Assembly: GCA_947626355.1 (NCBI GenBank)
Contig: CANQRV010000013.1
Span: 1-52,589, forward strand
Reading direction: 5' to 3'
DNA: 52,589 bases
Origin: an uncultured Muribaculaceae bacterium
GTDB taxonomy: Bacteria; Bacteroidota; Bacteroidia; Bacteroidales; Muribaculaceae
Shown: in pieces, positions 8,573 to 52,467 of the stretch
How the letters are laid out: every line of letters starts with the position of its first letter
How positions within the stretch are numbered: position 1 is the stretch's first letter
Notes under the pieces: model-generated
The model's database searches: none
Told to the model about the DNA's origin: nothing
The model's input: the letters and a program-made list of their open reading frames with translations, nothing else
Made by a program: the position numbers and the translations under genes

Positions 8573-10651
8573 TCAGATTGTGGCGGCGGTGGAGGGGCGG
8601 GCGCGGGCGCTCACGGCCGCGAGGCGGCGACACCTGGCTACATGGCGCGGGGCCGGCATCTCGTGGAAGCAGATGTGGAGGGCGATGGCACGGGTCATCA
8701 ACAGGTCGTCGTGGCGCCCCGGAAGAGCGCCGTAGCTGCCGTTGGGGCGACGCTCATACGTCAGGTATTCGTCAAGACACGCCTCGTCGCGCTCGGCATA
8801 CAGCCGCTCACGTATCACCTTTATCAATGTGGAGATGATCATCGGCTTGGTGGCGACGTTGGTGTGGAAGCCGTATTTCGTGGGGATGCCCTGGCGGATG
8901 TCCTCCTCGCTGCGGCGCCGCGCATACAGGTTGGGATAGACGTCGCGCAGCTGGTTGAGGATGAAGCCCGACTGGTCGCCGTCGACCTGCCGGTCGCGGT
9001 CGCGGGTCTCGAGGGTGTTGCTCTCCACGACGAGGAGGGCCTCCTGATAGAAGGCGGCGATGCGCAGGGCGTTCCAGGCGAGGAGGTCCATGTCGGAGTG
9101 GCCGCGCCATTGGGCGACGAGGGCCGGGCGGCCGCCGTCGAGCATGAACTTGCGGTCGAAGACCGCCACCACCGACCAGTCGGCCTTGTCGGAACGGCCG
9201 CCGATGTCGACGACGGCGAGGTATCGGTCGGAGACAGAGCGGTCGGCGTCGGGGAGTGCCCAGACGGCGAGGCGGCCGCACTCATCCTCCACGAAGCGGA
9301 GCCCGGCGAGGGCGCCGCGTCCCTCCGGGGCATCCGAGCTCACCTCGCCGCGCCAGCGTGGCGCGCGGCATCCCCGCCGGAGGTCCTCCACCTTATATTT
9401 GTCGAAGACGCGTGCGCCGGAATGCACGAAGGCCTCGATGTCGTCGCTGGGATACTCGGCGGCCATGAGGCCGTGGTCGGAATACTTCATGCGCTCGTCG
9501 ACATACCAGCGGATGGCCTCGAGGGTGGCGCCCCGCTCCCAGAGCTGCCAGAGGTAGCGGCCGGGCTGCCGGCGGTCGGAGGTGGCCACGGTCTGGGCGC
9601 GCATGCGCAGCAGCTCGCCGGCGAAGGCGCGGGCTTCGGCGAGGGGCGCCGAATACTGCGGGATGGCGAACCAGGGGATGAAGAGGGGGCGGAACTGCGA
9701 GTCGCCGCGGCGCGCGGCCTCATACTCGCGATGGAAGAAATTGCCGGTGCCGTTGGCCGTCGACTCGAAGACGATCATCGTGAGCGGGCGCAGGAGCACC
9801 CCCGAGCATGCCGAACGAAGGAGCTGCTCGGGGGTCTTCTCTTTGGTGGCCTTCCAGATGCCGACCTCGGAGCAGTGCACGAGGTTGTAGTCGCCGCCGC
9901 GGCATGAGTCGGGGCGCTCGGCTGAGCCCACCTTCACCTTGCAGTTGCGGGCGGGGATGCGGAAGGCGGAGCCGGAGCGCCCCACGCGCTCCATGCGCTT
10001 CTCCCCTTTCGGGGGCTTCTCGCCGGGAGGATAGAGGAGAGTGGCGGGATAGGAGGCCATCATGCGGTCGAACATATCCTTGATCTCGTCGGTGGCGACG
10101 CCCTGGTGGGCGATGATGAGGGAGTTGAGCCCCTCGAGATGCACGAGCTGGAGCCACGCCATGTATAGCTGCACGCATGTGGATCCGCCCCACTGACGGG
10201 CCTTGAGGAGGATGAGGCGTATGGGCTCGCCGGCGCGCCGCTGGCTCTCGAGGGCCTCGACGAGGAGACGCTGGGGAGGGTTGAGGGTGAAGAGCACGTC
10301 CTCCCCTCCCCCTTTCCTCTTTATATATGCGCAGGTGGCGGCCCAGAAGGGGAAGTCGTGGCGCAGGCGGAGACGGCGGAACTCCTCGCGGGTCTTCGAG
10401 CGGAGCCACTCGGAGGGCTCGGCGCCGCGTGTCTTCTCGATATAGTCGTCGAGGGAGCCGGCGCGTAGCAGGGCGACGCAGAGGGGGTCGGCGAGCATGG
10501 GCTCGGGGAGCCAGAGGGGATGGGGAGAGAGGCCCGGGAGGTGGAAGGCGACGCGCGGGCCGTCGCCGGGATCGCCTGCGACGGGGTCGTAGGGGCGGAG
10601 AAGGACTTCGCGTCGGCGCTCGTTCTCGCGCAGGATGTCGTCGACGGTCAT
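8573..10651 (-). CDS. Phage-type terminase large subunit (TerL)
   Basis: 692-aa DNA-packaging motor. The N-terminal ATPase has a deviant Walker A KARQWGGST (150-158), then SLIIAHQG, a Walker-B-like YNLVHCSEVGIW (255-266) and the coupling motif ESTANG (296-301). The C-terminal RNase H-like nuclease keeps its acidic residues: VDIGG (Asp482), VVESN (Glu543) and GRHDD (Asp648, Asp649). In phages this protein pumps DNA into the prohead and cuts it. Its ATG overlaps the stop of the upstream 140-aa gene (ATGA), as small and large terminase genes often do. No portal gene follows; the fimbrial operon does. The intact frame and residues argue against a decaying remnant. Confidence 0.9.
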   Translation of the reverse strand: MTVDDILRENERRREVLLRPYDPVAGDPGDGPRVAFHLPGLSPHPLWLPEPMLADPLCVALLRAGSLDDYIEKTRGAEPSEWLRSKTREEFRRLRLRHDFPFWAATCAYIKRKGGGEDVLFTLNPPQRLLVEALESQRRAGEPIRLILLKARQWGGSTCVQLYMAWLQLVHLEGLNSLIIAHQGVATDEIKDMFDRMMASYPATLLYPPGEKPPKGEKRMERVGRSGSAFRIPARNCKVKVGSAERPDSCRGGDYNLVHCSEVGIWKATKEKTPEQLLRSACSGVLLRPLTMIVFESTANGTGNFFHREYEAARRGDSQFRPLFIPWFAIPQYSAPLAEARAFAGELLRMRAQTVATSDRRQPGRYLWQLWERGATLEAIRWYVDERMKYSDHGLMAAEYPSDDIEAFVHSGARVFDKYKVEDLRRGCRAPRWRGEVSSDAPEGRGALAGLRFVEDECGRLAVWALPDADRSVSDRYLAVVDIGGRSDKADWSVVAVFDRKFMLDGGRPALVAQWRGHSDMDLLAWNALRIAAFYQEALLVVESNTLETRDRDRQVDGDQSGFILNQLRDVYPNLYARRRSEEDIRQGIPTKYGFHTNVATKPMIISTLIKVIRERLYAERDEACLDEYLTYERRPNGSYGALPGRHDDLLMTRAIALHICFHEMPAPRHVARCRRLAAVSARARPSTAATI

Positions 10652-11070
10652 GGGCGCACTCCTTTCCGGCGCATGCAGCGCTCGCGGTAGATGATGCTCC
10701 GGGCAGTGGCCGGGGAGAGGTAGAAGCGCGGGGCGGCGGTGTTGACGACGCGGAAGGTGGCCTCGGTGAGGGAAAGCGATGGGTCGGCGTCGAGGAGATG
10801 CTGCACGCGCCGGTAGATCTCGGCGAACATCTCGCGTCGCTCGGGGTTCATGCCGGCGATGCTGACGCCGCGGCGCATGGCGCCGACGACGGCTGCGGCG
10901 CGGCGCTCGCTGACGTAGAAGCGGGAGGCGGGAGTAGCCACTACAGTATGAAACACGCGCGAGAGGTCGACGAGGCCGGTGTCGGCGGCGACGAGAGATG
11001 AGAATGCCTGAAGGAGGGCGGCGTTGCGCTCGCTCCCGAATTCAGTCTGATTGCCAATGTGTTTTGCCAT
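10648..11070 (-). CDS. Candidate small terminase subunit with internal duplication
   Basis: 140 aa, not recognised by family. It is called a candidate small terminase from position: directly upstream of TerL with an ATGA overlap. Residues 36-62 and 101-127 are two copies of the same 27-residue module (ATPASRFYVSERRAAAVV versus NTAAPRFYLSPATARSII), each looking like a helix-turn-helix-sized unit. Small terminases bind DNA to select packaging sites, so a tandem binding domain would fit, but this is inference. A well-formed promoter (11211-11241) lies about 140 nt upstream of the start. It could also be a regulator of the packaging operon. Confidence 0.6.
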   Translation of the reverse strand: MAKHIGNQTEFGSERNAALLQAFSSLVAADTGLVDLSRVFHTVVATPASRFYVSERRAAAVVGAMRRGVSIAGMNPERREMFAEIYRRVQHLLDADPSLSLTEATFRVVNTAAPRFYLSPATARSIIYRERCMRRKGVRP

Positions 11071-11111
11071 AATTCTGTTTTTTGTTTTTTGTTTTGGTTA
11101 GCTTTTTTCAA

Positions 11112-11156
11112 GATTAATCTTGATTAATCAGGAATAATCTTGATTAATCATGATTC
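11112..11156. repeat. Tandem 10-bp GATTAATC array, site 1
   Basis: GATTAATC occurs at 11112, 11122 and 11142, with GAATAATC filling the 11132 slot and GATTC at 11152. The period is exactly 10 bp, so all copies face the same side of the helix. It lies in the leader of the small-terminase transcript, between the divergent phage-type operons. Confidence 0.85.
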
Positions 11157-11210
11157 TCCCGAGAACCGTTAGTGCGCGAAGCGCCAAGCGTTGCTGTTGG
11201 AATCGCGATG

Positions 11211-11241
11211 CAAAGATAGTATGAAAATTGTAAAATAACAA
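11211..11241 (-). promoter_or_regulatory. Promoter of the leftward terminase operon
   Basis: Read leftward: ATTG (TTG at 11241-11239), 20 nt, then TATCTTTG (11218-11211), a match to the Bacteroidetes -33/-7 consensus. Transcription would start near 11204, running through the GATTAATC array. The -33 element is overlapped by the inverted repeat AATAGC-AAC-GCTATT (11240-11254). Confidence 0.75.
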
Positions 11242-11254
11242 TAGCAACGCTATT
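11240..11254. promoter_or_regulatory. Inverted repeat, candidate operator
   Basis: AATAGC-AAC-GCTATT is a perfect 6-bp inverted repeat centred on the -33 side of the terminase promoter and upstream of the rightward operon. Its position fits an operator, but no binding protein can be assigned. Confidence 0.45.
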
Positions 11255-11297
11255 ATTTAGTATTAAATTTGCAACGTCAAACAAAAACAGAAGAGTT

Positions 11298-11954
11298 ATG
11301 AACGACAACAACGCAAAGCAAATGAAAGAGAACGAAAAGGAGAGAGACACCCTGCTTGAGAAGATCGCGGGGCTCGTGAGGCGCCTTGGGCGCCGCGAGG
11401 GTGACACCCAAGGCGCTCTTGCGAGCGCCGAGCCGACCGAGGCGGCCGGTGAGGGCGAGCCGACCGGGGTGGCGGCGGGACGCCGCCTCTCCCAGGAAGA
11501 GCCGACCGAGGGCGACGCTCAGGGCTCCGAGAGCCCCGGGGCTGAGGAGAAGGAGGGGGCGTGCTGCAAGCTGCCGATGGTGATCAAGAGGAACATCGTC
11601 AACTCCATCGAGGAGGTGAGACGCTTCGCGGAGGAGCACGAGCTGGCGGTGACGGCCGTGGAGTCGGTGCTCGGAATGATCCTGGAGGTGGCGGTGGGAT
11701 GCGCCGAGGGAAAGGTGAGCCGGCAGATGCTGCTGTGGGCGCTGCGGGTGCTCAACTACGAGCGCGACAAGGCGGAGGCGCGCCGCAAGGGTGAGCTCGA
11801 CGGGCGCAACGCGGCGATAGAGGAGCGCTACTTCCGGGGTCGCCCGGAAGACGTGCCCTACCTGACGAGCGGCACGGACACTCCGCTCGGCGACGAGCAG
11901 GACGAGGACGACATCTTCGAGATGGCGCGAAGCGCGAGGAGCGCGAAGCGCTAA
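11298..11954 (+). CDS. Unknown protein upstream of capsid gene, possible scaffold
   Basis: 218 aa, not recognised. There is a charged N-terminal helix (1-30), then a low-complexity Ala/Gly/Glu stretch (about 31-85), a helical middle (VIKRNIVNSIEEVRRFAEEH, then MLLWALRVLNYERDKAEAR), and an acidic tail (DEQDEDDIFEMA). The position just before the capsid gene and the helical, acidic make-up fit a scaffolding protein, but that is inference. The DNA of the low-complexity part contains a family A palindrome in frame (11468-11495), encoding GVAAGRRLSQ. The stop TAA sits at the start of another repeat remnant (AAGAGTCAAGAGTGAAG). A weak TAAATTTG (11264-11271) lies upstream. Confidence 0.6.
   Translation: MNDNNAKQMKENEKERDTLLEKIAGLVRRLGRREGDTQGALASAEPTEAAGEGEPTGVAAGRRLSQEEPTEGDAQGSESPGAEEKEGACCKLPMVIKRNIVNSIEEVRRFAEEHELAVTAVESVLGMILEVAVGCAEGKVSRQMLLWALRVLNYERDKAEARRKGELDGRNAAIEERYFRGRPEDVPYLTSGTDTPLGDEQDEDDIFEMARSARSAKR
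11468..11495 (+). repeat. Family A half-palindrome inside a coding sequence
   Basis: GGTGGCGGCGGGACGCC then GCCTCTCCCAG matches the right arm of family A copies (for example around 14780-14805) and is translated in frame within the 218-aa gene. Confidence 0.7.
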
Positions 11955-12008
11955 GAGTCAAGAGTGAAGAGTGAAGTCACTGACCGGGCAGAACGTAGGG
12001 AGAGTCAA

Positions 12009-12036
12009 GATTAATCAAGATTATTCATGATTAATC
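12009..12036. repeat. Tandem 10-bp GATTAATC array, site 2
   Basis: GATTAATC (12009), GATTATTC (12019) and GATTAATC (12029) with exact 10-bp period, 51 nt before the capsid start codon. Confidence 0.85.
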
Positions 12037-12086
12037 TTGAAAAAACATCCAAATCAAAAAAAACAAATCAAAAACAAAACAGAATC

Positions 12087-13562
12087 ATGGAAAAGGAAAT
12101 GACCAACATCGCCGGGCAACCGGCAACCGTGAGCGCGGCCGCCGAGGCCACCAACGGCCTGGCTACAGGCAATTTCATACAGCCGGATATCGACGAGCAG
12201 CTGTTTCGCTTCAACAGCGAGGACACGCCGCTGATGAACCTCATGCTTCGCGCCAAGCGCGTGAAGGTGAACTCGCCGGAGGTGGACCACTATATGATCG
12301 ACGAGCCCCGCGCGGTGGTGACCACCACGGCGGCGGTGAGCGGCGACAACGCCTATCAGGTGGAGCTGCCGCTGGGGCCGGCCGACCAGAACCTGCCCCG
12401 CCCCTACACCACACTGCTGGTGGAGAGCGTCGACGGCTACAGCGCCGACGGACGCGAGCGCACGCCGGGGCGTCCGCTGATGCTCTTCGTGAAGGGGCGC
12501 TCCACCACCACCAACTATCCCGTGGTGACGGCCGTCAACGGCCCGCGCAACAGCGCCGACGACGAATACTGCACCATCCCGGAGATCCCCGCCGGCACGA
12601 GGATCGTAATCCTCGCCAACTCCCTCTACGAGACCCAGAAGGAGGTGGACCCCGACCTGACGGTGCCCCGCCCCACCCGCGTCTACCTCCAGAAGAGGGG
12701 GATGAACCAGGTGGTGAGCGACTACTTCGAGAGCCAGAAGAAGAGCATCCCCTTCTCGAAGGCGATCATCGCCGAGCAGGCGATCGCCAACTTCAAGATC
12801 CGAGGCAACCGCACCCTCTGGGCGGGACGTGCCGGGAAGTTCAAGCTCGACACCGGCAAGATGGGGCTCCAGACCGTCTACACCACGGAGGGGGTGAGAT
12901 GGCAGTTCAAGAGGGAGCTGCAGCACTCCGGACGCTGGACGGTGGAGAAGGTGATCGCCCTGGCGAAGATGTTCTTCACCGGCGAGGACGTGCCGAAGAC
13001 GGCGCTGCTGCTGGCGGGGAAGAACCTGCTGGAGCAGATACAGTGTATCGACTTCTCGAAGCACCCCGAGATCCAGATCACCACGAAGACCAACAGCATA
13101 GGGTGGACCGTCACCAACTTTCACACCGTATTCGGCGACATCGAGATCAAGCGGGAGCCGACGCTCGACCGTCTGGGATGGAGCAACAGCGGCGCCCTCA
13201 TCGGCGAGGACCGTCTGGTGCATTACGTCTACAGCACGGAGCACCGGTTTTCGGGGCGCATGGAGGGCGAGGAGGCGACGCGCAGCGGAATCCTCATCTG
13301 GGACGCCCTGGCCCTCAAGGGAAGCTGCCACATCTGGATCGACGGCGAGGGTGGCCAGCAAGGGAGCGAGGCCCTCGGCATGCGCCTCTGGGACAGCGAG
13401 GAGGCGCCCGGCGAAGACGATCTGGCAGGCGGCGTGGTGTTCTACCTGCTGCGCGACTGCCCCGGCATCGGGGCCGCGGCCCGCAGCGGCCAGATGTGGA
13501 CGGCCGTGAAGAGCGGGGGCGCCCTTGTCTGGAGCGAGTATGCGGGGGAGCAGGCGGTGTGA
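12087..13562 (+). CDS. Phage-type major capsid protein
   Basis: 491 aa from ATG 12087 (an in-frame ATG at 12027 would translate the GATTAATC array and a Lys/Asn-rich leader, so it is rejected). The N-terminal arm DIDEQLFRFNSEDTPLMNLM, then RAKRVKVNSPEVDHYMIDEP, and the later KIRGNRTLWAGRAGKF, VYTTEGVRWQFKREL and VFGDIEIKREPTLDRLGWSN motifs are those of HK97-fold capsid proteins of the kind found in Bacteroidetes phages. About 70 residues after the usual end (from GGQQGSEALG) look like an added beta-rich domain. The frame is intact, the position between a possible scaffold and accessory genes is normal for phages, and GC is as high as in neighbouring host genes. Confidence 0.82.
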   Translation: MEKEMTNIAGQPATVSAAAEATNGLATGNFIQPDIDEQLFRFNSEDTPLMNLMLRAKRVKVNSPEVDHYMIDEPRAVVTTTAAVSGDNAYQVELPLGPADQNLPRPYTTLLVESVDGYSADGRERTPGRPLMLFVKGRSTTTNYPVVTAVNGPRNSADDEYCTIPEIPAGTRIVILANSLYETQKEVDPDLTVPRPTRVYLQKRGMNQVVSDYFESQKKSIPFSKAIIAEQAIANFKIRGNRTLWAGRAGKFKLDTGKMGLQTVYTTEGVRWQFKRELQHSGRWTVEKVIALAKMFFTGEDVPKTALLLAGKNLLEQIQCIDFSKHPEIQITTKTNSIGWTVTNFHTVFGDIEIKREPTLDRLGWSNSGALIGEDRLVHYVYSTEHRFSGRMEGEEATRSGILIWDALALKGSCHIWIDGEGGQQGSEALGMRLWDSEEAPGEDDLAGGVVFYLLRDCPGIGAAARSGQMWTAVKSGGALVWSEYAGEQAV

Positions 13563-13600
13563 CGCCCGCCATTCATCAACCATAAAAACATTCAACAGCT

Positions 13601-14101
13601 ATGGACAAGACAATAAAGACCTACGGAGTGAACGGCCTGATGGAGTGGCACGCCCGGCTGCCGTTGGGGAAGACGACGCTGCTGGTGGACTTCACCGGGG
13701 GCAGCCTGACGGGCTACGGGGTGTCGCCGGCCACCTACACGACGGGCAACGAGGTGGTGCAGCGTGTGATCGAGAGCTCGCGCCCCTACCGCGAGGGTAA
13801 GATCAGGCTGCTGCGGAGCGTGGCGACGGCGAAGCCGCCCGCCGCCGGGGGCGCAGAACCAGTCGGACCAGTCGGGACGAGGAGGGAGACCGCTCCCTCC
13901 TCCCCTGCCCCGGCGCCACCGGCGGCCGCCGGTGGGCAGCCCGACCTCTTCAGCTACGAGGCCACCGACGAGGCCGACGCCGCCGACTACCTCAGCGGCA
14001 GCCACGGCGTAGCCTCGGAGAAGCTCAACAGCCGCGCCGACATCTTCCGCGAGGCGTCGCGCCTCGGCATAACGCTGACCATCGATGGCGACCGACGTTG
14101 A
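13601..14101 (+). CDS. Unknown phage-type accessory protein
   Basis: 166 aa, 38 nt after the capsid gene. The N-terminal about 70 residues are a beta-rich module (KTYGVNGLMEWHARLPLGKT, then LVDFTGGSLTGYG). A Pro/Ala linker (about 75-110) and a short helical C-terminal part (LNSRADIFREASRLGITLTI) follow. I do not recognise a named family. Position suggests a capsid decoration or assembly protein. It overlaps the next gene by 17 nt, so the two are probably translated together. Confidence 0.62.
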   Translation: MDKTIKTYGVNGLMEWHARLPLGKTTLLVDFTGGSLTGYGVSPATYTTGNEVVQRVIESSRPYREGKIRLLRSVATAKPPAAGGAEPVGPVGTRRETAPSSPAPAPPAAAGGQPDLFSYEATDEADAADYLSGSHGVASEKLNSRADIFREASRLGITLTIDGDRR

Positions 14102-14657
14102 ACTGCTGATCGACATGGCGCTGCGGCTCGCCGGCGAGTCGCCGGCCCACTGCGGCTACGGCGAGGAGGGTGGCGCACTCACAGTGCGCCGCCGGCTGCG
14201 CCAGCTGGTGGAGCCGGCGGCCGCGCAGGCGGTCCGCGAGGCGCCGGCGAGCGTCTTCGCCACGTGGCGCGAGCTCGACCCGGAGGGGGTGACGGTGGAG
14301 GCCGGCGGCTGCGGCTACGCACTGCTGCCCGCCGACTTCATGCGCCTGCTCTCCTTCCGGATGAGCGACTGGCGGGTGGCCGTGGAGCGCGTCGACGAGG
14401 CGCGAGGCGCCTGCATGGGGCGCCTCTACCCGGAGGCCTACGCCTCGCCGTCGCGGCCGGTGTGCCGCCTCGGGCAGCGCCCGGAGGGGCGCGCGCTCCT
14501 CTTCGCGGGCTCGCGCTCGCCGACGGCGACGCTGACGCAGGGGCTCTACGTGGCGCAGCCGCGCATCGACCGGCGCGGCACCATCGAGGTGCCCGAGGAG
14601 CTGCTCGCCGCGATTGCCAGCAAAATGCTTGCAATCGCAGCGAAGAGTGAAGGGTGA
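14085..14657 (+). CDS. Probable head-tail connector / adaptor protein
   Basis: 190 aa. Layout resembles tail-accessory/connector proteins of the P22 gp4 or crAss ring type: an N-terminal helix (ELLIDMALRLAGES), a helical pair (VRRRLRQLVEPAAAQAVREA), then a beta-rich half with LLPADFMRLLSFRMSDW and ends near IEVPEELLAAIASKML. Position after capsid and accessory genes supports this. The last codons K-S-E-G and the TGA stop are supplied by the start of a family A repeat (AAGAGTGAAGGGTGA at 14643), so the natural C-terminus has been replaced at the very end. Family assignment is by resemblance only. Confidence 0.62.
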   Translation: MATDVELLIDMALRLAGESPAHCGYGEEGGALTVRRRLRQLVEPAAAQAVREAPASVFATWRELDPEGVTVEAGGCGYALLPADFMRLLSFRMSDWRVAVERVDEARGACMGRLYPEAYASPSRPVCRLGQRPEGRALLFAGSRSPTATLTQGLYVAQPRIDRRGTIEVPEELLAAIASKMLAIAAKSEG

Positions 14658-14820
14658 TGCGCTTCGCGCAAGAGTGCGTAGCCCTTGGGAGTGGCGGCGT
14701 CCCGCCGCCTTCGCGAAGCGAGGCCACCCCGCGACGCCACCCGGCATGCCACCCGGCAAAAATACCTATGGGCTCGCAGGCTGGCGGCGGGACGCCGCCT
14801 CTCCCAAGGCACTCCGCGGG
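14643..14820 (+). repeat. Family A repeat, full copy, at a gene 3' end
   Basis: Starts AAGAGTGAAGGGTGA, includes TGGGAGTGGCGGCGTCCC, GCCGCCTTCGCGAAGCGAGG, ACCTATGGGCTCGCAGG and GGCGGCGGGACGCCGCCTC. Outer GGCGGCG arms form a large inverted repeat. It overlaps the last codons of the connector gene and runs straight into GATTAATC array 3. Confidence 0.9.
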
Positions 14821-14857
14821 GATTATCGGGATTAATCATGATTATTCATGATTATTC
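14821..14857. repeat. Tandem GATTAATC array, site 3
   Basis: GATTATCG (14821), GATTAATC (14830), GATTATTC (14840) and GATTATTC (14850): 9-, 10- and 10-bp spacing, ending 37 nt before the fibre start codon. Confidence 0.85.
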
Positions 14858-14894
14858 ATGAAAAATTGATTGCTAATTTCTAATTGCTAATTAA

Positions 14895-16526
14895 ATGAAG
14901 GATCTGCAATGCGTGGGTGACGCCTGCTTCCACCGCGACGTGACGGTGAAGGGATGGCTCGAGGCCGACAACATCACCGGCTTCCTGCGAGGGCTCTATC
15001 CCACTTACGATGAACTGAAGGAGAAGCTCCCGGAGCCGCACGAGGGATGGTGCGCGCTCGTCGGGGAGACACTGCCCGCGACGCTCTACCGCGCGTCGGG
15101 GCTGCAATGGCACAACACGGGCACCACGGCGGGCACGCCGACGGTGGCCTCACCGGCCACCACGGGGAGTACAGCTCGTCTCGACGCCGCGGAGAGGCGC
15201 CTCACGGAGGCGGAGAACCGCCTCGATGCCGACGAGACACGCCTCGCCGACACCGAGCGGCGCCTTGACGTCGGCGAGGAGCGGCTGACGGCCGCGGAGA
15301 GCGACCTGCGTAGCCACAGCCGACGGCTGCTGGAGCTGGAGCGGAGCGGAGCCACTCCGCAACAGCCCTCCACCGGTGAGGGCGCGACCGCGAAGCACCG
15401 TCTCAACGGGCGACGCCTCACGGTGATCGGCGGCGCGGGGAGCGTGGATGGCGGCTGGGCCACGAGGCTGGCGGCCGCCACGGGAATGAGCTTCGACGCC
15501 GAGGCCAACAGGAGCTACTGCTCGGAGGCGGGGCTCCTCGAGGAGGGAGCGTCGGCGCAGTGGCGCGCCTCGCGGCTGATCGCCGACACGCAGACGAGTC
15601 CCGACGTGATCATCATCGACGCGCCGACGGGAGCCCTCCCGGAGGGGAGCGCCGATGACGCCCCCTATTTCGCCGGGCCGCTGCATATAATAGCAGCCGG
15701 CGGGAGCGTCAACCGCACGGCGGCGCAGGCCGTGGCCGCCTTCAAGAAAAGCCTTGCCTCCATCGCGGGCACCACGCCGGGAGCGCACGGCACGCGCTAC
15801 GCCCTCCCTACCACGGCCACCGCGGGCTACACCGTTGCGCTGACCTCCGGCGCCAGCGTGTCGGGAAGCGTCATAATCAGCTACGGCGGACGCGAGCGGC
15901 ACGTGGGCGTGAGGGCCGGGGAGAGCGCCTCTGTCATCGCGTCGCGCCTGCGGAGCCTGGAATGGGAGGGGTTCACCGTCGGGGGAGACGGCGTCGCGCT
16001 GGTGTGGATGGCGATGGAGAGCGGCGCGGAGGCGCCGGAAATCCGTGGCAACGGCACCGGCGTCACCTCGGGCTCCGCGCAGACGGGCACCGGCTACAGC
16101 CACGTCACCGTCACCTTCACGGGCCACGACCCGGAGAAGTGGCTCGACCCAGACAGCTGGCAGCCCTTAGGGCAGATCAGCGCCGTGAGCGCCGTGAAGG
16201 GGATGGTCGACGCGCTGTCGGGGCGCTTCCCGGGCGCGGAGATAGTGTGGGTGGAGCTGCCGGGGTATGTCTTCAGCGCGGAGCATGAGAAATTCGTGCG
16301 CGGCGATGAGAGCGCGGACACGGAGGCCATCGAGACGACGCTCCGCGGCATATCGGGGGAGCCGCTGTGGCGGGCACTCGCGACACGCGGGATGCAGGCG
16401 CTCGACCTGCGGGAGGCGTCGGGCATCAACGCGGCCAACGCTTTCAGGCATTTCAAGGACTGGAGCGTAACATTCACGGAATCAGGCAGCGAGCGGATAT
16501 GCGAAGGATTTCTGAAAAAATTATGA
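14895..16526 (+). CDS. Coiled-coil tail-fibre-like protein with SGNH-like domain
   Basis: 543 aa. The N-terminal module (VTVKGWLEADNITGFLRGLY, then GWCALVGETLPATLYRASGL) is the kind seen at the start of Bacteroidetes phage fibres. Residues 95-150 are eight uninterrupted heptads of the form RLxxxEx, a probable trimeric coiled coil. From about 170 an alpha/beta domain begins with RRLTVIGGAGSVDGGWATRL, which looks like an SGNH/GDSL hydrolase opening in which GDS has become GAGS, so activity is doubtful. PDVIIIDAPTGAL fits the second strand of that fold. The gene is last in the rightward phage-type block. A receptor-binding or sugar-modifying role is inferred. Confidence 0.65.
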   Translation: MKDLQCVGDACFHRDVTVKGWLEADNITGFLRGLYPTYDELKEKLPEPHEGWCALVGETLPATLYRASGLQWHNTGTTAGTPTVASPATTGSTARLDAAERRLTEAENRLDADETRLADTERRLDVGEERLTAAESDLRSHSRRLLELERSGATPQQPSTGEGATAKHRLNGRRLTVIGGAGSVDGGWATRLAAATGMSFDAEANRSYCSEAGLLEEGASAQWRASRLIADTQTSPDVIIIDAPTGALPEGSADDAPYFAGPLHIIAAGGSVNRTAAQAVAAFKKSLASIAGTTPGAHGTRYALPTTATAGYTVALTSGASVSGSVIISYGGRERHVGVRAGESASVIASRLRSLEWEGFTVGGDGVALVWMAMESGAEAPEIRGNGTGVTSGSAQTGTGYSHVTVTFTGHDPEKWLDPDSWQPLGQISAVSAVKGMVDALSGRFPGAEIVWVELPGYVFSAEHEKFVRGDESADTEAIETTLRGISGEPLWRALATRGMQALDLREASGINAANAFRHFKDWSVTFTESGSERICEGFLKKL

Positions 16527-16556
16527 AAAATTTTTTTGAATTTTTTTGGTGAAATA

Positions 16557-16588
16557 TTTGGTGGGAATGAAAAAAGGTTGTAACTTTG
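16557..16588 (+). promoter_or_regulatory. Promoter of tRNA-Asp
   Basis: TTTG (16557-16560), 20-nt spacer, TAACTTTG (16581-16588): a consensus Bacteroidetes promoter 48 nt upstream of the tRNA. Confidence 0.85.
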
Positions 16589-16636
16589 CACTCGCAATCG
16601 GGAAACAAACCCCGGGCGCAAGAAAAAGACTCTAAA

Positions 16637-16711: not shown

Positions 16712-16725
16712 CCGAGGAGAGAGGA

Positions 16726-16767
16726 AGAGCAGCAGCGTAAACTTAGGTTTCCTGCTGCTCTTTTTTT
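16726..16767 (+). terminator. Terminator after tRNA-Asp
   Basis: 10-bp stem AGAGCAGCAG / CTGCTGCTCT, 16-nt loop, followed by a run of seven T. Confidence 0.9.
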
Positions 16768-16792
16768 GTATTTGCATTGAATCGGTTGGCCT

Positions 16793-18195: not shown

Positions 18196-18240
18196 AATTA
18201 TCGGGATAATCGGGATAATCCTGATTAAGCATGATTAAAT
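18196..18240. repeat. Tandem GATTAATC-like array, site 4
   Basis: GATAATC at 18205 and 18214, GATTAAGC at 18223, GATTAAAT at 18233: spacing 9, 9, 10. It lies directly upstream of the methyltransferase and follows a family A repeat, as site 3 does. Confidence 0.75.
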
Positions 18241-21431: not shown

Positions 21432-21947
21432 TCAGATGGGTGAGAGGCGGCGGGGGCGCGCGGGGGGCCGGGCGAGGACCCGGAGCGAGACCCGGGCCGC
21501 GTCGAGACGCTCGCTGAGCGGGGCGACGACGTCCGGCGCCACCGCCTCCAGACGCCTCAGCAATACATACGTCACCACGAAATCGGTGACCACGGCCCTC
21601 AGCCGCTCCCTCCTCCAGAGAGGAAACGGCAGCCCGGCGGCGGGAAGCAGGATCCAACCCTGCTTCCCGCCTTCCGTTTCCGGGGTAGAACCTGCTGACG
21701 CATGACCGCCTTCCGTTTCCGGGGGCGCGACGATGACGGCCTGACGCCCAAAAAGGGCGGCCGCCTCCGAGAAGGCGAGGCGCAGCATGGCCGTGACCCA
21801 CGGCATGTTGTCGTCGTCGCAGATGTCGGCGAGCTGATGGAGGCGATGGGGAGTGTAGGAGCCCTCGAGGATGTCGGCCTGCACAAACGCTGCGTCGGCG
21901 ATGTCGGCCGTCAGGGAGTCGAGGGGCCAGAAGATATGGGCGTCCAT
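21432..21947 (-). CDS. Unknown helical protein, third gene of repressor-linked cluster
   Basis: 171 aa, not recognised. Mostly alpha-helical (DSLTADIADAAFVQADILEG, HRLHQLADICDDDNMPWVTA, MLRLAFSEAAALFGR), then a linker with an in-frame duplication (PETEGGHASAGST then PETEGG, from a 19-bp DNA direct repeat at 21667 and 21706), and a last helix RLRAVVTDFVVTYVLLRRLE. The basic C-terminus (RPPARPRRLSPI) is charge-rich. The start follows the previous stop by 3 nt, so it shares a transcript with the next two genes. No function is proposed beyond membership of the phage-like cluster. Confidence 0.65.
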   Translation of the reverse strand: MDAHIFWPLDSLTADIADAAFVQADILEGSYTPHRLHQLADICDDDNMPWVTAMLRLAFSEAAALFGRQAVIVAPPETEGGHASAGSTPETEGGKQGWILLPAAGLPFPLWRRERLRAVVTDFVVTYVLLRRLEAVAPDVVAPLSERLDAARVSLRVLARPPARPRRLSPI

Positions 21948-21950: not shown

Positions 21951-22442
21951 TCAGGAGGCGGCGGGGCGACGCGGCCTCACGCGGCGGCACAGGGCTACGT
22001 CGAGCGCCGAGAGCGCCCTCTCGGCGGCCTCCGCATAGTCGGAGGCGTCGCTCTTGTCGGTGATCACAAACCAGTCGGCCACGGCGCGGGCCACGATGAA
22101 ATCGTGGGCCGAGGCGGCGATGGCCTCGAGAGAGGCCGTATTGTAGTTGGAGGGCATCGCCAGCAGGAGCACCACAGAGCCCGCGGCCTCCTGAAGCGAA
22201 TTGCGGGCCGACGTGGCGTCGACCGTGAGATACTCCCCCACCCTGGTCTTGAGCTGCGCCAGCGCCGTGGAGACGCTGCGGCGCACCTGGTCGAGGTTCT
22301 CCTCGTCGTCATTGGCCTGCATCGCGGCCACGCGCTCGTGGCTCAGGGCGTCGGAGCGGCTGCGGCCGGTGAGATAGGTCTTGTTCTGGATATCGAAGAT
22401 GATCTCGGCGATATCGAGTGTGATTGAGATTGACTTTTTCAT
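21951..22442 (-). CDS. Unknown helical protein, second gene of repressor-linked cluster
   Basis: 163 aa from ATG at 22442 (start of MKKSISITLDIAEIIFDIQN; longer starts would translate AT-rich intergenic DNA). It opens with a short strand, then KTYLTGRSRSD and helices (MQANDDEENLDQVRRSVSTA, LAQLKTRVGEYL, then SLEAIAASAHDFIVARAVAD). Size, strand-then-helices layout and spacing resemble the neighbouring 150-aa protein, suggesting distant paralogues. I recall similar unannotated proteins in other Bacteroidales but cannot verify it. A structural (tail/baseplate) role would be a guess. Confidence 0.68.
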   Translation of the reverse strand: MKKSISITLDIAEIIFDIQNKTYLTGRSRSDALSHERVAAMQANDDEENLDQVRRSVSTALAQLKTRVGEYLTVDATSARNSLQEAAGSVVLLLAMPSNYNTASLEAIAASAHDFIVARAVADWFVITDKSDASDYAEAAERALSALDVALCRRVRPRRPAAS

Positions 22443-22507: not shown

Positions 22508-22960
22508 TCATGCGGCGCCGCCGCGCCTCTGCGGGCGGCGGCGGTGGGTGCAGCGGGCGGCGGCGGCCTCGAGGAGGGCGTCGGCCTTGGCCTGCATGGC
22601 CGGGGCGGCGGGCTTGTTGGCCATCGCATACCACTGTGCGGTGACGGAGGCCACCATCGATGAATAGATGTCGCGGGAGAGGGAATTGCTCTGTGCGTCG
22701 TCGTAGGCCGAGGAGAGGGAGAGCACCATGGCGAAAGAGCCGAGGGCGTAGTCGACGCTGACGATGAAGTCGCGCAGACGGGCGGCGACAACGGCCGCGG
22801 CCTCGGTCCAGAACAGGTTCAGCATCTCGAGGGCACCCTCGTCGGCGGCTATGCGGTCGACGGCATCGGGGTCGGCGGCGCGTCCGGCGGCGAAAGCGGA
22901 GGTGCGGGCGGCGTCGGCCACGACGTCGTCGCGCAGGATCTGGATTTTCACAGTCTTCAT
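22508..22960 (-). CDS. Unknown helical protein, first gene of repressor-linked cluster
   Basis: 150 aa from ATG at 22960 (MKTVKIQILRDDVVADAART). Strand, then helices with AFAAGRAADPDAVDRIAADE, EMLNLFWTEAAAVVAARLRD, FIVSVDYALGSFAMVLSLSS and a Lys/Ala-rich end that turns strongly basic (HRRRPQRRGGAA). It is first in a three-gene leftward unit; a leftward TATCTTTG (23062-23055) lies about 100 nt upstream. The unit faces the repressor gene, so regulation by that repressor is likely. No family is recognised. Confidence 0.68.
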   Translation of the reverse strand: MKTVKIQILRDDVVADAARTSAFAAGRAADPDAVDRIAADEGALEMLNLFWTEAAAVVAARLRDFIVSVDYALGSFAMVLSLSSAYDDAQSNSLSRDIYSSMVASVTAQWYAMANKPAAPAMQAKADALLEAAAARCTHRRRPQRRGGAA

Positions 22961-23318: not shown

Positions 23319-23981
23319 ATGAAGACAGAGAATGGACGCGACCTGACGACCGTGAAGGGACGCCTGATGGAGTTTCTGCGCACGCGGAAAATCAGCCGTA
23401 AGGAATTCTCGGAAGCCATGGGCCTCTCTCTCAACTATGTGGGCGCAATCCGCAAATCGCTCCCCGCGGAGCGCATGCGGCGGCTGATGGAGCTCTACCC
23501 GGAGCTCAACCGCGACTGGCTGCTCTACGGCGAGGGGGAGATGCTCAACGACAGGGATGGGACGCCGGCGACTGCCGACGGCTACGCCGTGCCGCTGCTC
23601 CCCGTGGAGGCGAGCGCCGGCACCATGTCGCAGATCTCGGCGGGGGTGATGCCCTACGAGTGCGAGACGATAATGTCGCCGGTGAGGGGCGTCGACATGG
23701 CCATCAAGGTGTGTGGCGACAGCATGGAGCCCACCTTCAGCAACGGCGACACATTACTGATTAAGAAAATCAACGACAAGGCCTTCATCCCGTGGGGCCA
23801 TCCGGTGGTGATCGACACGGAGAACGGGGTGCTGGTGAAGGCGCTCTACCCCGGCGACACACCCGGGGAGGTGCAGGCGCGGAGCCACAACCCGGCCTAT
23901 CCGCCTCTCGACATCCCGAAATCCACGGTCTACGGCCTCTACAAGATCATCGGGAGGATTTCCCTTTACCAGTCGTACTGA
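23319..23981 (+). CDS. LexA/cI-like repressor: HTH plus S24 peptidase
   Basis: 220 aa. N-terminal DNA-binding helices (VKGRLMEFLRTRKISRKEFS, EAMGLSLNYVGAIRK), a linker, then a complete S24 autopeptidase domain: candidate cleavage site EASAGT (Ala100-Gly101), Ser135 in VCGDSMEPTF and Lys174 in GVLVKALYPGD. Such repressors self-cleave when RecA is activated by DNA damage, releasing phage genes. The start ATG 23319 has a strong AAGGAG ribosome site, unusual for Bacteroidetes. The gene is opposite the three-gene phage-like unit and shares its control region. The 3' end overlaps the convergent kinase gene by 35 nt. Confidence 0.9.
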   Translation: MKTENGRDLTTVKGRLMEFLRTRKISRKEFSEAMGLSLNYVGAIRKSLPAERMRRLMELYPELNRDWLLYGEGEMLNDRDGTPATADGYAVPLLPVEASAGTMSQISAGVMPYECETIMSPVRGVDMAIKVCGDSMEPTFSNGDTLLIKKINDKAFIPWGHPVVIDTENGVLVKALYPGDTPGEVQARSHNPAYPPLDIPKSTVYGLYKIIGRISLYQSY

Positions 23982-48038: not shown

Positions 48039-48076
48039 GCATAGGATTCTTTACAATCATCCATTGATCAACCGAC

Positions 48077-48117
48077 AGCGGGGGTGGAGCCTGAGAAGGG
48101 TTTCACCCCCGCTTTTC
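48077..48117 (+). terminator. Strong intrinsic terminator
   Basis: AGCGGGGGTG / CACCCCCGCT, 10-bp perfect stem with 17-nt loop, followed by TTTT. Confidence 0.92.
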
Positions 48118-48183
48118 ATCCCCTTCGCTCCCCATTTAGGGAAATTTATGAATAGGATTTATGCATCATTCACAAAAAATCGC

Positions 48184-48191
48184 TAAATTTG
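48184..48191 (+). promoter_or_regulatory. -7 element upstream of saccharopine-dehydrogenase-like gene
   Basis: TAAATTTG at 48184-48191; a -33 (TTTATG near 48158) is imperfect. Confidence 0.5.
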
Positions 48192-48248
48192 TCGGATTAT
48201 GCCGGATCTGCCGGTGAGTTTATTGTTTACCTTTTTAACTATTTCAAC

Positions 48249-49445
<1,197 letters not shown>

Positions 49446-49472
49446 CCGCGACCCAATTATTCCGACATCATT

Positions 49473-51872
49473 ATGAAGACATTCCATTTAAGCTGCGCCG
49501 TGATGGCGGCTTCGGCCGCCATCGCCGCCGGCGTAAGCCACGAGGGCCCCACGTGGACCGTGGCCACCGGGAAAGGCGAGGTGGCCGTCACACCCCTCAC
49601 CGACAACATCTTCCATATCGCCACCTTCAGCCGCAAGGGCGCGGAGATGCTCCCCGCATCCCAGAGCGCCGTGCTCGAGCCGGGAGCTGCAAGCATACGC
49701 ACCGCCCTCGACGACAACTCCTTCTGGCTATACTCCCCCACAACCACCGTGAGGGTCGACCGCTCCACGGGGCGCGTCTCCTTCATGACTCCCGACGGCG
49801 ACACCCTCCTCTCCGAGGCCGGAGGCATCGACAACTCCGGCGACGTGAAGACCGTGACCTTCACCTCCCGGGCCGATGAGACATTCTACGGCGCCGGAGA
49901 GCGCGGCCACCGCCTGAGGCTCAACGGAGACTCCCTCTCCATGTACAACCGCCAGAACTACGGCTACACCGGCTCCGACCCCAGGATCTCGCAGATGGGT
50001 ATCTCCGTGCCCTACTTCGCATCCGATGCCGGATACGGCGTGCTCTTCGACGACTATAACAAGGCCGCCCTCGAGCTGCGCGACACCATCACCTACACCT
50101 CAGACACCCCGCTGCCGCTGTCTTACTACTTCATCAACGGCGGCAAGACCCTGGCCGGCACCACCGAGGGATACACGCGCCTCACAGGACGCCAGGACCT
50201 CCCCCCCTTCTGGGCGCTCGGATACGTGACCTCCAAATACGGATACCACAACCAGAAGGAGGCACTCGGAGCCATCGACTCGCTGAAGACGCGCGGATAC
50301 CCGCTCGACGGCATCGTTTTCGACCTCTACTGGTATGGCGTGGAGACCGACATGGGACGCCTCGCATGGGACGCCACACAGTGGCCCGACCACCGGCAGA
50401 TGCTTCGCGACCTCGACAGCCTCGGCGTCAACCTCGTGATGATCACCCAGCCATACGTCAACAAGAAGGGGGCCATCGACAACTACAACTACCTCTCGGA
50501 GCGCGGCATGCTCGCCAAGGACTCCCTGGGACGCACCCACGACGTCACCACATGGGTGGGCGACGCCGGAATGATCGACGTCAGCAATCCCGAGACACGC
50601 GAATGGCTCTGGCAGCGACTCAGGCCTCTCACCGGGGAAGGCGTCTACGGCTGGTGGGGCGACCTCGGCGAGCCTGAGGTGCATCCCCTCTCCATACGCC
50701 ACGCCAACGGCCAGACAGCCTCCCAATACCACAACGTCTACGGCAACGAGTGGAGCCGCATCCTCTACGAAGGGCTCCGCCGCGACTTCCCCGACCGACG
50801 CCCGCTCCTTATGATGCGCGGCGGCACGGCCGGGCTCCAGCGTTACTCCGTATTCCCCTGGACCACCGATGTCTCCCGCTCCTGGGGAGGCCTTGAGCCG
50901 CAGGTCAACCTCATGCTCGGCTCCGGCCTCTCCGGCCTCGCATACATGAGCTCCGACCTCGGCGGTTTCGCCGTAGACCCCGCCGACCCCATCGACCCCG
51001 AGCTTTACGTGAGATGGGTGGGGATGGGAGCCTTCACCCCTTTCATGCGCACCCACGCCCAGCTCATGCCCGAGCCTTACCATTATCCCGAGCAGGATCC
51101 GCTCATAAGGAAGTTCATCAGGATGCGCTATGAATGGCTCCCCTACAACTACACGCTGGCCTACGAGAACGCCGCTTTCGGATATCCCCTGGCGCGCCCC
51201 CTCAATTTCCGGGGCGACAATCCCGACCGCCGGTATGCCGACCTCAGCGATGAATACCTCTGGGGCGACAATGTGCTCGTGGCCCCCGTCATGAAGAAGG
51301 GAGCCACAAGCCGCAAGGTGCTCTTCCCGGCCGGCGAATGGATAGACTGGCGCGACGCCTCCCGCCGCTACCGGGGAGGCACGGAGGCAACCGTCAGCGC
51401 CCCGCTCTCCGACCTCCCCCTCTTCGTCAGGGCTGGAAGCTTCATCCCCCAGTATCCCGACAGAATCGAAAACGTGAGGCAGTATGACCCCTCGCGCCTC
51501 TGGGTGAGGTATTACCCCGCCGACACCGTCAGCCGCTACACCCTCTATGACGACAACCGCCTGAGCCCCACCTCGCTCGCCAACGGCGACTACCAGCTGA
51601 TCAACTTCAGCGGAAGCCGCGCCGACGGTGCGATTACGGTACACCTCTCCTCGGAAGGGAAATATGCCGGCATGCCGGCCGTCAGGATGATCACCTTCGA
51701 GATTCCCGGCGTGGCGCGTCCGTCGCAGGTCATGCTCGGCGACATCCGTCTCGAGGAGGCCGTCTCCCCCAAGGCCATCCGCCAGTATGGCTACAGCTAC
51801 GACCAGGCCACGCGCACGCTCTACGTGCGCTTCCCCTTCGACGGGAAGCCGGCCACCTTCAGCGTACGCTGA
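49473..51872 (+). CDS. GH31 family alpha-glucosidase, secreted
   Basis: 799 aa. Signal peptide (KTFHLSCAVMAASAAIAAGV). N-terminal beta-sandwich, then the (beta/alpha)8 barrel: DETFYGAGERGHRLRLNGDS, PPFWALGYVTSKYGYHNQKE, IVFDLYWYGVETDMG, nucleophile Asp397 in GWWGDLGEPEVHP and acid/base Asp466 in PWTTDVSRSWGGL, then VGMGAFTPFMRTHAQ. The C-terminal beta domain ends in TLYVRFPFDGKPATFSVR. Hydrolyses alpha-glucosidic or xylosidic bonds in the periplasm or on the surface. The last 14 nt overlap the convergent endolysin gene. Confidence 0.93.
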   Translation: MKTFHLSCAVMAASAAIAAGVSHEGPTWTVATGKGEVAVTPLTDNIFHIATFSRKGAEMLPASQSAVLEPGAASIRTALDDNSFWLYSPTTTVRVDRSTGRVSFMTPDGDTLLSEAGGIDNSGDVKTVTFTSRADETFYGAGERGHRLRLNGDSLSMYNRQNYGYTGSDPRISQMGISVPYFASDAGYGVLFDDYNKAALELRDTITYTSDTPLPLSYYFINGGKTLAGTTEGYTRLTGRQDLPPFWALGYVTSKYGYHNQKEALGAIDSLKTRGYPLDGIVFDLYWYGVETDMGRLAWDATQWPDHRQMLRDLDSLGVNLVMITQPYVNKKGAIDNYNYLSERGMLAKDSLGRTHDVTTWVGDAGMIDVSNPETREWLWQRLRPLTGEGVYGWWGDLGEPEVHPLSIRHANGQTASQYHNVYGNEWSRILYEGLRRDFPDRRPLLMMRGGTAGLQRYSVFPWTTDVSRSWGGLEPQVNLMLGSGLSGLAYMSSDLGGFAVDPADPIDPELYVRWVGMGAFTPFMRTHAQLMPEPYHYPEQDPLIRKFIRMRYEWLPYNYTLAYENAAFGYPLARPLNFRGDNPDRRYADLSDEYLWGDNVLVAPVMKKGATSRKVLFPAGEWIDWRDASRRYRGGTEATVSAPLSDLPLFVRAGSFIPQYPDRIENVRQYDPSRLWVRYYPADTVSRYTLYDDNRLSPTSLANGDYQLINFSGSRADGAITVHLSSEGKYAGMPAVRMITFEIPGVARPSQVMLGDIRLEEAVSPKAIRQYGYSYDQATRTLYVRFPFDGKPATFSVR

Positions 51873-52467
51873 GGGACGAGCCGAACGTCAATATGCGGCG
51901 CCGCCAGCCGCGCAGCCATTTACGCTGCGCGGGGCGGCGCCTCACTATATCATCCACCCAGCGCAGGCGGTCGTCGGTGAGCCGCGCGAGCAGGGCGGCG
52001 GGCTCACGCGAGGCCACGGCGGCGAGAGTGGCCGGCCCCACGATACCGTCGGCCCTGACGCCGAGAAGGCGCTGCGGCCTCTTCACGCCCACGGCTCCGC
52101 TCGCCCACACATAGTCGACGAGCATCTCGGCCACCTCCTGCGAGGCTATGACGTCGGCCCGCCAGCGATTCCAGTACCCCTCGCGGAGCACGTCGAGCCA
52201 CTCGTCGTAGGTGATGGCCCGCAGCATCGCCGCCGTGGGCGCCGGCTGCGAACGGCGCCGCCGGTAGGCGCGGTAAGAAGCCAGCGTGACGCCACACATC
52301 GTGGCTCCACCGCTGTCGAGCGCGTCGCAGCTCCACCCCGTGCGACGCGCAAGAGCGAAGAGACGCCTGTTGCGGGCGTCGGAAGAGGGATCGGGGATCG
52401 GGTCGCCGAGTGGCGTCCCCGCTTCGAAATGGAGTATCTTCTCCACAATCTTTTCTATATCTGCCAT
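51859..52467 (-). CDS. Phage-type endolysin, GH108-like muramidase with PG-binding end
   Basis: 202 aa from ATG 52467. Candidate catalytic Glu15 in ILHFEAG, the DSGGATMCGVTLASYRAYR stretch (51-69) that matches the conserved DxGGxTxxGVT of GH108 lysozymes, ITYDEWLDVLREGYWNRWRA, and a PG_binding_3-like end (LLGVRADGIVGPATLAAVAS). About 20 extra residues (SSDARNRRLFALARRTGW) separate Glu15 from the DxGG motif. No signal peptide, so a holin or lysis would be needed for access; none is visible. It stands alone, 28 kb from the other phage-type genes. Confidence 0.85.
   Translation of the reverse strand: MADIEKIVEKILHFEAGTPLGDPIPDPSSDARNRRLFALARRTGWSCDALDSGGATMCGVTLASYRAYRRRRSQPAPTAAMLRAITYDEWLDVLREGYWNRWRADVIASQEVAEMLVDYVWASGAVGVKRPQRLLGVRADGIVGPATLAAVASREPAALLARLTDDRLRWVDDIVRRRPAQRKWLRGWRRRILTFGSSLSVR

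What the first reader, a model, noticed from the sequence alone, without database searches (positions are those of the whole stretch)
8573..52467. Scattered, intact phage-type genes: candidate gene-transfer agent or domesticated phage
Packaging (TerL, candidate TerS), capsid, connector and fibre genes (8.5-16.5 kb), a small-protein unit with an SOS-type repressor (21.4-24.0 kb) and a lone endolysin (51.9-52.5 kb) are separated by tRNA-Asp, aroQ, metG, lipid, rnpA and xerD genes. Their frames are open and the TerL nuclease and repressor peptidase residues are kept. No integrase, attachment sites, replication genes or portal are near. Dispersal of phage genes among core genes with no mobility functions is the known signature of gene-transfer agents (RcGTA type). 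The linkage of the three loci into one system is inference.
Basis: partly seen in the sequence, partly recalled or inferred. Interest (0 to 1): 0.85.

Follow-up and report, generated by a model that had tools for sequence, protein, structure and literature searches.

The report
Scattered domesticated phage packaging genes
A family of common gut bacteria carries intact-looking virus head and DNA-packaging genes that are scattered over the chromosome and inherited like ordinary bacterial genes, probably to build particles that carry the bacterium's own DNA; this has not been shown by experiment.

Summary
The window carries intact TerL, TerS, scaffold-like, SU10-type capsid, two small head genes, a fibre, three small phage proteins, an S24 repressor and a GH108 endolysin, split by host genes. 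The missing portal is on another contig of the same genome. In five relatives the terminase, capsid and repressor units are contiguous, so they belong to one system. Across the host family (Muribaculaceae by record titles) TerL is in 363 of 397 genomes, portal in 231 of 247, capsid in 227 of 247 (true prophages included), TerL and portal up to about 0.95 Mb apart. The TerL tree follows host genera; near pairs show purifying selection. The window's capsid and terminase types are each one clade beside a radiation of temperate phages, with shortened portal and scaffold. So two domestications: an old family-wide set and a second in the window's genus. A gene-transfer agent is the best-supported function; particles, packaged DNA and transfer are untested.

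The parts
8573..10651 (-). TerL, large terminase (ATPase + nuclease), 692 aa
   Evidence: phrog_2 E 1.7e-15; 61% to temperate phage BS-TP4; catalytic columns invariant in 10 rows; TerL match in 94 of 111 genus genomes, prophages included
10648..11070 (-). TerS candidate, 140 aa, overlapping TerL start
   Evidence: phrog_27246 E 1.4e-29, a family of unknown function; homologue found in 19 of 20 TerL loci of the genus; role inferred from position
11298..11954 (+). scaffold-like gene before the capsid, 218 aa
   Evidence: phrog_22323, unknown function; same position before the capsid in relatives and phages; role inferred from position
12087..13562 (+). major capsid protein, SU10/DUF5309 type, 491 aa
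   Evidence: PF17236; match in 74 of 111 genus genomes; one clade of domesticated capsids
13601..14101 (+). small head gene (g166), usually shortened in the domesticated clade (69-145 aa in 27 loci; 166 aa here)
   Evidence: role inferred from position
14085..14657 (+). head-completion/connector-like gene (g190)
   Evidence: phrog_22135 E 4e-18, unknown function; homologues in 44 of the genomes and phages read; no solved relative; role inferred from position
14895..16526 (+). tail-fibre-like protein, N-terminus homologous to phage BS-TP4 gp14
   Evidence: BLAST and iterated profile
21432..21947 (-). small phage protein sA
   Evidence: same family as BS-TP4 gp23-25
21951..22442 (-). small phage protein sB
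   Evidence: phrog_19255 E 2.9e-41; BS-TP4 homologues
22508..22960 (-). small phage protein sC (likely start 22960; ORF runs to 23038)
   Evidence: phrog_35482 E 1.1e-19
23319..23981 (+). LexA/CI-type repressor with S24 peptidase; Ala-Gly site, Ser135 and Lys174 kept
   Evidence: PF00717 E 8.5e-12; 11 of 11 rows; in 14 of 27 domesticated loci and 0 of 90 others
51859..52467 (-). GH108 endolysin with peptidoglycan-binding domain
   Evidence: PF05838 E 1.6e-14, PF09374 E 2.1e-14; sits beside the GH31 gene next to which TerL or TerS lies in G106, G095, G029 and fibre-TerS in G055

Best explanation
These are the head, packaging and lysis genes of a former temperate podovirus-like phage, taken over by the bacterium and kept as a dispersed, vertically inherited gene set. 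They most likely build small DNA-filled particles that package host DNA: a gene-transfer agent. Steps: (1) an SOS-cleavable repressor is lost on DNA damage and the scattered operons are switched on (inferred); (2) capsid and scaffold assemble on the portal, which is encoded elsewhere (inferred from homology); (3) TerS/TerL fill heads with chromosomal DNA by a headful mechanism (the family-wide TerL profile matches T4 gp17; packaging of host DNA is inferred, since the genes lie up to about a megabase apart in relatives and could not be packaged together); (4) the endolysin frees the particles (inferred); (5) the fibre and the gp26-like protein deliver DNA to kin (speculative). Shown here: gene identity, dispersal, family-wide conservation, vertical inheritance, purifying selection in near pairs, absence of the giant phage protein from this genome, and two separate domestications.
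For: Gene identities. Portal with gp26-like gene on another contig. Units contiguous in G062, G108, G028, G077 and G001; in G086 three other frames part TerS/TerL from the rest. The same host genes (secG, TPR, lptE, sigma-54 regulator, acyltransferase) beside the portal in G000, G002, G029, G054 and G106, and all but the acyltransferase, a little farther off, in G019. Family-wide: TerL 363/397, portal 231/247, capsid 227/247; near-complete genomes 210/222, 164/171, 163/171; 29 of 30 genera each. TerL and portal about 954 kb apart in G117, about 648 kb in G200, about 755 kb in G165 if its contig is circular. TerL tree of 69 rows: 17 genus changes, minimum 16, shuffled mean 43.4. rpoB and TerL agree on two subclades of the window genus. 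Nearest-pair dN/dS: TerL 0.07 and 0.14, capsid 0.05, portal 0.05. Domesticated capsids: one clade of 34 rows, support 99; domesticated TerLs: one clade of 29 rows against 31 phage rows, support 99. Best viral-contig identity to the family-wide TerL 45% among the 80 kept. C-terminal part of the giant phage protein matched in 17 of 111 genus genomes, not in G000.
Against: No experiment: particles, DNA content and transfer are unknown. No tail tube or tape measure was recognised among the genes read (the ancestor looks podovirus-like). The giant protein next to the portal in phages, perhaps needed for DNA delivery, has no match in G000. In 14 of 14 searched genomes of the same genus that carry the old type, the TerL match lacks a recognisable nuclease, which does not fit headful packaging there. 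In the sparser TerL tree the window-type TerLs were not one clade (G055, G056 and G061 fell outside BS-TP4); with many phage rows they are. The repressor is found in only 14 of 27 domesticated loci (loci differ in reach). dN/dS could not be measured for the gp26-like gene (no near pair), and small genes gave higher values (scaffold 0.19-0.50, window capsid against G003 0.31 at dS 0.79). Some genomes lack one hallmark gene.
Confidence: 0.6

Rival explanations
1. A domesticated particle with another use: a PBSX-like killer particle that packages host DNA but delivers none.
For: The same gene anatomy would do; fibre and lysis genes are present; PBSX packages random 13-kb host DNA without transfer (passages of PMC7667829).
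Against: No immunity gene or contractile tail set was noticed in the loci read (no dedicated search was made); conservation across 29 of 30 genera would be unusual for a strain-specific killer.
Confidence: 0.15
2. Kept as anti-phage decoys: packaging and head proteins that poison assembly of incoming BS-TP4-like phages.
For: Related prophages occur in the same genus and order; head proteins are shortened; 14 genomes keep a TerL match without recognisable nuclease.
Against: Nuclease and ATPase residues and the endolysin are kept in the window type and scaffold and portal genes are present; a decoy needs no lysis gene.
Confidence: 0.12
3. Leftover prophage fragments without function.
For: No integrase or replication genes were seen near; phage relatives exist.
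Against: Frames without internal stops in nearly all listed places at about 55-75% protein identity; neutral simulation gives about 16 stops in TerL at 30% divergence, none of 500 runs with zero; near-pair dN/dS mostly 0.05-0.25; genus-congruent tree.
Confidence: 0.05
4. A still mobile phage or satellite whose parts only look scattered because of draft assembly.
For: Many genomes are metagenome assemblies; capsid relatives at up to 70% are in viral contigs.
Against: Separation holds inside long contigs and in a cultured isolate, G002/Isolate-036: TerL and capsid in the interior of a 505-kb contig, portal in the interior of a 62-kb contig. 41 of 60 viral loci have a portal of 600 aa or more (some others are cut by contig ends), domesticated loci 432-517.
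Confidence: 0.05

Closest known systems
Temperate Bacteroides phages BS-TP4, BKO1-TP3, BF1-TP2 (GenBank PQ571277, PQ571269, PQ571263)
   Same: TerL 61-62% (BF1-TP2 46%), capsid about 24%; BS-TP4 portal 48-52%, and its gp26, fibre and small proteins are homologous; same divergent TerL/capsid layout in the two records read
   Different: BS-TP4 has an integrase, replication genes and a 5391-aa protein in one 64-kb genome, BF1-TP2 a tyrosine recombinase and a 3633-aa protein (BKO1-TP3 not read); the bacterial set is split and the giant protein has no match in G000
RcGTA-like gene-transfer agents of Alphaproteobacteria
   Same: Structural genes kept by vertical descent and dispersed (dispersal of GTA operons: PMC12946183 passage); headful-type terminase (PMC7947584 passages)
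   Different: Apparently separate origin: SU10-type capsid and P22-type portal; no RcGTA chain among matches to solved structures; here the core head and packaging genes themselves are split up
FpGTA of Faecalibacterium (PMC12946183)
   Same: Gut bacterium; TerS, TerL, portal, scaffold, capsid (passages)
   Different: A 10.5-kb operon of ten frames in Bacillota, with packaged-DNA and mass-spectrometry evidence; here a dispersed set in Bacteroidota without particle evidence
PBSX of Bacillus subtilis
   Same: Domesticated phage that packages host DNA
   Different: One contiguous defective prophage (recalled); acts like a bacteriocin and does not transfer DNA

Membership tests
Gene-transfer agent | Phage-derived head and packaging genes in a bacterial chromosome | tested here: met
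Gene-transfer agent | Genes dispersed, no autonomous phage genome | tested here: met
   TerL and portal up to about 954 kb apart; C-terminal part of the giant phage protein not found in G000; integrase and replication genes were not searched genome-wide
Gene-transfer agent | Vertical inheritance under purifying selection | tested here: met
   dS saturated for most pairs, so selection rests on near pairs and open frames
Gene-transfer agent | Host-linked regulation and lysis gene | tested here: inconclusive
   S24 repressor residues kept and endolysin present; induction not testable
Gene-transfer agent | Particles are made | not testable with these tools
   needs culture and microscopy
Gene-transfer agent | Particles hold random host DNA, less than the encoding genes | not testable with these tools
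   needs sequencing of packaged DNA
Gene-transfer agent | DNA is delivered to recipients | not testable with these tools
   needs marker transfer
BS-TP4-like temperate phage | Contiguous genome with about 650-aa portal and giant protein | tested here: not met
   portal 435 aa on another contig; giant protein not found; length contrast
RcGTA lineage | Homology of capsid/portal/TerL to RcGTA proteins | tested here: inconclusive
   none among matches to solved chains at E up to 1; no direct comparison with RcGTA was run

The most novel reading that the evidence does not exclude
A gene-transfer agent of a dominant gut Bacteroidota family, older than the family's genera and perhaps shared with sister families, whose parts are scattered over the whole chromosome; in the window's genus the old set has been replaced by a fresh domestication of a related phage, a case of gene-transfer-agent turnover.
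Probability: 0.45. Interest if true: 0.93.

Novelty: new variant of a known kind. Interest (0 to 1): 0.85.

Why it matters
If it is a gene-transfer agent, a bacterial family common in the mouse gut has a built-in, vertically kept route for moving its own DNA, in a phylum for which my searches of an open-licence library listed none described. A mouse-gut study reported possible generalised-transduction or gene-transfer-agent patterns in 46 contigs of its particle DNA comparison, with Bacteroidetes the largest group among its contigs (PMC7667829, passages); this gives a concrete candidate. Two domestications with living phage relatives also open the birth and replacement of such systems to direct study.

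Tried and rejected
Prophage scar: rejected, because shared frames are open in nearly all listed places and the TerL tree follows the genera. Draft-assembly illusion: rejected by long contigs and an isolate genome. Window type as the same lineage as the family-wide type: not supported; the TerL tree puts it with phages on a long branch and the capsid is 18-21% identical to the four old-type capsids aligned. dN/dS for distant pairs: not usable, dS saturated; ratios up to about 1.57 were printed there. The g190 profile found no solved relative. Shared upstream motif: AT-rich GATTAATC-type clusters precede three of the window's operons, but also a host gene, and were not seen at the repressor, endolysin or portal loci, so I draw nothing from it. 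Paper on gnotobiotic mouse viromes (PMC10892684, passages): nothing on this system. Structure prediction: five tries, the queue was full each time; no model was made. A labelling flaw: TerL and TerS fell under one cluster label; families were redone by profile. In one search rows under 480 aa were left out, and the rows of G001, G016 and G089 are their prophage copies. Three rows labelled domesticated by length (L110, L119, L354) fell outside the main capsid clade; the length comparison used clade membership, not the length label. Rows dropped: near-identical capsids (103 kept); rows of unsure type, TerLs under 600 aa, near-identical rows and every second phage row (60 kept).
Full report
WHAT IS THERE. 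The window is one whole contig (C13, 52,589 bases) of a 3.09-Mb draft genome of 148 contigs. The phage-type genes are real and intact: TerL (phrog_2), a TerS candidate (phrog_27246, unknown function), a scaffold-position gene, an SU10-type capsid (PF17236), two small head genes, a fibre, three small phage proteins, an S24-peptidase repressor (PF00717) and a GH108 endolysin (PF05838). The repressor keeps the Ala-Gly cleavage site, Ser135 and Lys174 in 11 of 11 aligned rows (roles recalled from LexA/CI); TerL keeps its Walker and nuclease residues in 10 of 10 (motifs recalled).

THE MISSING PORTAL. A search of the same genome with the portal of the temperate phage BS-TP4 found it on contig C39 (48-52% in two pieces): a 435-aa P22-type portal (PF16510 E 2.1e-27), overlapping by 4 bases a 770-aa gene that is homologous to BS-TP4 gp26, a putative structural protein. 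The C-terminal 1173 residues of the BS-TP4 giant protein had no match in G000 and a match in 17 of 111 genus genomes, several of them weak.

THE UNITS BELONG TOGETHER. In four relatives (G062, G108, G028, G077) and a fifth (G001) the small proteins, the repressor, the capsid group, TerS and TerL are contiguous, in one order; in G001 the portal follows too. In G086 the same group is there but three other frames part TerS/TerL from the scaffold gene. The endolysin lies next to a GH31 gene; TerL or TerS lies beside the same GH31 gene in G095, G029 and G106, and fibre and TerS in G055.

DISPERSAL AND FIXED SITES. The portal lies beside the secG - TPR - lptE - sigma-54 regulator - acyltransferase block (names) in G000, G106, G029, G054 and G002 (in G000 the gp26-like gene is in between), and near it in G019, where the acyltransferase is missing from that place. 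In the isolate genome G002 TerL and capsid are deep inside a 505-kb contig and the portal deep inside a 62-kb contig. In the family-wide type, TerL is often alone or only with the gp26-like gene, while scaffold - capsid - g190 - portal form a second cluster in most of the 20 loci read. Distances inside single contigs: G117 about 954 kb, G200 about 648 kb, G120 about 101 kb, G161 about 72 kb; G165 about 755 kb if its 3.31-Mb contig is circular.

HOW WIDESPREAD. Genus: TerL 94 of 111, capsid (window-type query) 74 of 111, portal 87 of 111. Family: TerL 363 of 397, portal 231 of 247, capsid 227 of 247; among near-complete genomes 210 of 222, 164 of 171, 163 of 171; 29 of 30 genera in each. These counts include true prophages of the related phage lineage, which some genomes carry beside the domesticated set (for example G089, G016, G001). 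By eye, most rows list one match, some two or three (prophage copies or split alignments). Order: TerL of the family-wide type in 20 of 247 genomes, 11 of 166 genera; four hits are from the own family, sixteen from seven other families, six of which (f18, f24, f54, f61, f80, f99) were hit two or three times; the list of non-hits was cut, so I cannot give rates. Of 15 such TerL loci read, 11 show TerL without another gene of the set in reach (one of them, L239, has a distant TerS match, and L240 is only 5.8 kb long is also counted); L231, L232, L241 and L246 have other phage genes near.

VERTICAL INHERITANCE AND SELECTION. A tree of 69 TerLs needs 17 changes of genus label, the minimum being 16 and the shuffled mean 43.4. 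It is a quick tree with SH-aLRT support only. Within the window's genus rpoB and TerL agree on two subclades, {G000, G062, G077, G086, G028} and {G019, G002, G027, G003, G095, G106, G029} (rpoB was found in 25 of 30 genomes asked); other placements (G011, G055, G056) do not agree closely. Near pairs: TerL dN/dS 0.07 and 0.14, capsid 0.05 and 0.23-0.24, portal 0.05 and 0.13-0.18; the window against G008, TerL 0.25 at dS 1.1, and against G003, capsid 0.31 at dS 0.79. For most pairs dS is saturated and I do not use the ratios; the gp26-like gene had no near pair. Under unconstrained change TerL would collect about 16 stops at 30% divergence (500 simulations, none with zero).

TWO DOMESTICATIONS. 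The window-type TerLs group with phages BS-TP4 and BF1-TP2 on a long branch, apart from the family-wide TerLs; the capsid is 18-21% identical to the four old-type capsids aligned. In a capsid tree of 103 rows (54 labelled phage by a portal of 600 aa or more, 37 domesticated, 12 unsure) 34 window-type rows form one clade (support 99) nested among phage capsids; three rows labelled domesticated by length lie elsewhere. For TerL the first tree, with only two isolated phages and three prophages, left G055, G056 and G061 outside the BS-TP4 branch, which would speak against one origin; a tree with 31 phage rows puts all 29 domesticated rows in one clade (support 99). Lengths differ by type: portal median 464 (15 of 27 domesticated loci have one in reach) against 657 (78 of 90 others); g166 83 against 190; scaffold 201.5 against 247. 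The repressor is in 14 of 27 domesticated loci and 0 of 90 others. So the family-wide set is old, and the window's genus made or received a second one. Genomes of the same genus with the old type (14 of 14 searched) have a TerL match that stops after the ATPase part; a separate nuclease-like piece was seen in G110 only, which may be a prophage remnant.

MECHANISM. Best reading: a gene-transfer agent. The family-wide TerL profile matches T4 gp17, a headful packaging enzyme (packaging mode recalled), and the portal profile matches solved phage portals. Damage-induced release of the repressor, assembly, headful filling with chromosomal DNA and lysis follow from the families; delivery is the weakest step. 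Known GTAs as listed in passages of PMC12946183 (outline, abstract and passages seen) are in Rhodobacterales, Desulfovibrio, Brachyspira, Bartonella, Caulobacter and Methanococcus, plus the new FpGTA in Faecalibacterium; its abstract names lateral transduction for Bacteroides and GTA activity for Oscillospiraceae and Ruminococcaceae. Searches for papers with 'gene transfer agent' and Bacteroidetes (74 papers, 20 listed), Muribaculaceae (0), Bacteroidales (13) and Bacteroidota (15) showed no such system in the listings; the library holds open-licence papers only. PMC7667829 (passages only) found possible generalised-transduction or GTA patterns in 46 contigs of a mouse gut sample, where Bacteroidetes was the largest group of contigs (805, of which 83 with some transduction pattern); it does not name these hosts in the passages seen.

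LIMITS. Many genomes are metagenome assemblies; genus and family codes are the tool's; no structure model was made; no RcGTA protein was compared directly; trees are quick ones; function is inferred.

Noticed in passing
G004, G014, G016, G033-G035, G037, G050, G052, G053, G076, G107, G109, G110 (L060-L062, L243): In 14 of 14 searched genomes of the window's genus with the old type, the TerL match covers only the ATPase part; no recognisable nuclease domain follows, although most matches have no internal stop.
   Followed up: partly
window 11112-11150, 12009-12037, 14830-14858, 18204-18231: Clusters of GATTAATC-like repeats upstream of the TerS/scaffold, capsid and fibre genes, and of a host O-methyltransferase gene.
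   Followed up: partly
PQ571277, PQ571269 and PQ571263 (phage records): Their TerL is annotated as 'tail spike protein' in GenBank.
   Followed up: no
L041 near 17131 (own genome C39 end): The contig with the portal ends in what looks like a 5S rRNA gene right behind the portal (read by eye).
   Followed up: no
window 4951-8259: A 1102-aa gene in a low-G+C stretch (about 47-54%) with a weak DUF4906 match, just below its cut-off, next to TerL; perhaps a surface protein acquired separately.
   Followed up: no
L195-L197 (genus g18) and L044: In the three g18 loci read a small gene behind the capsid looks like an M15-type peptidase (from its motif, recalled), while some relatives in the window's genus have an Amidase_2 gene behind the capsid group: the lysis gene type changes between lineages.
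   Followed up: partly
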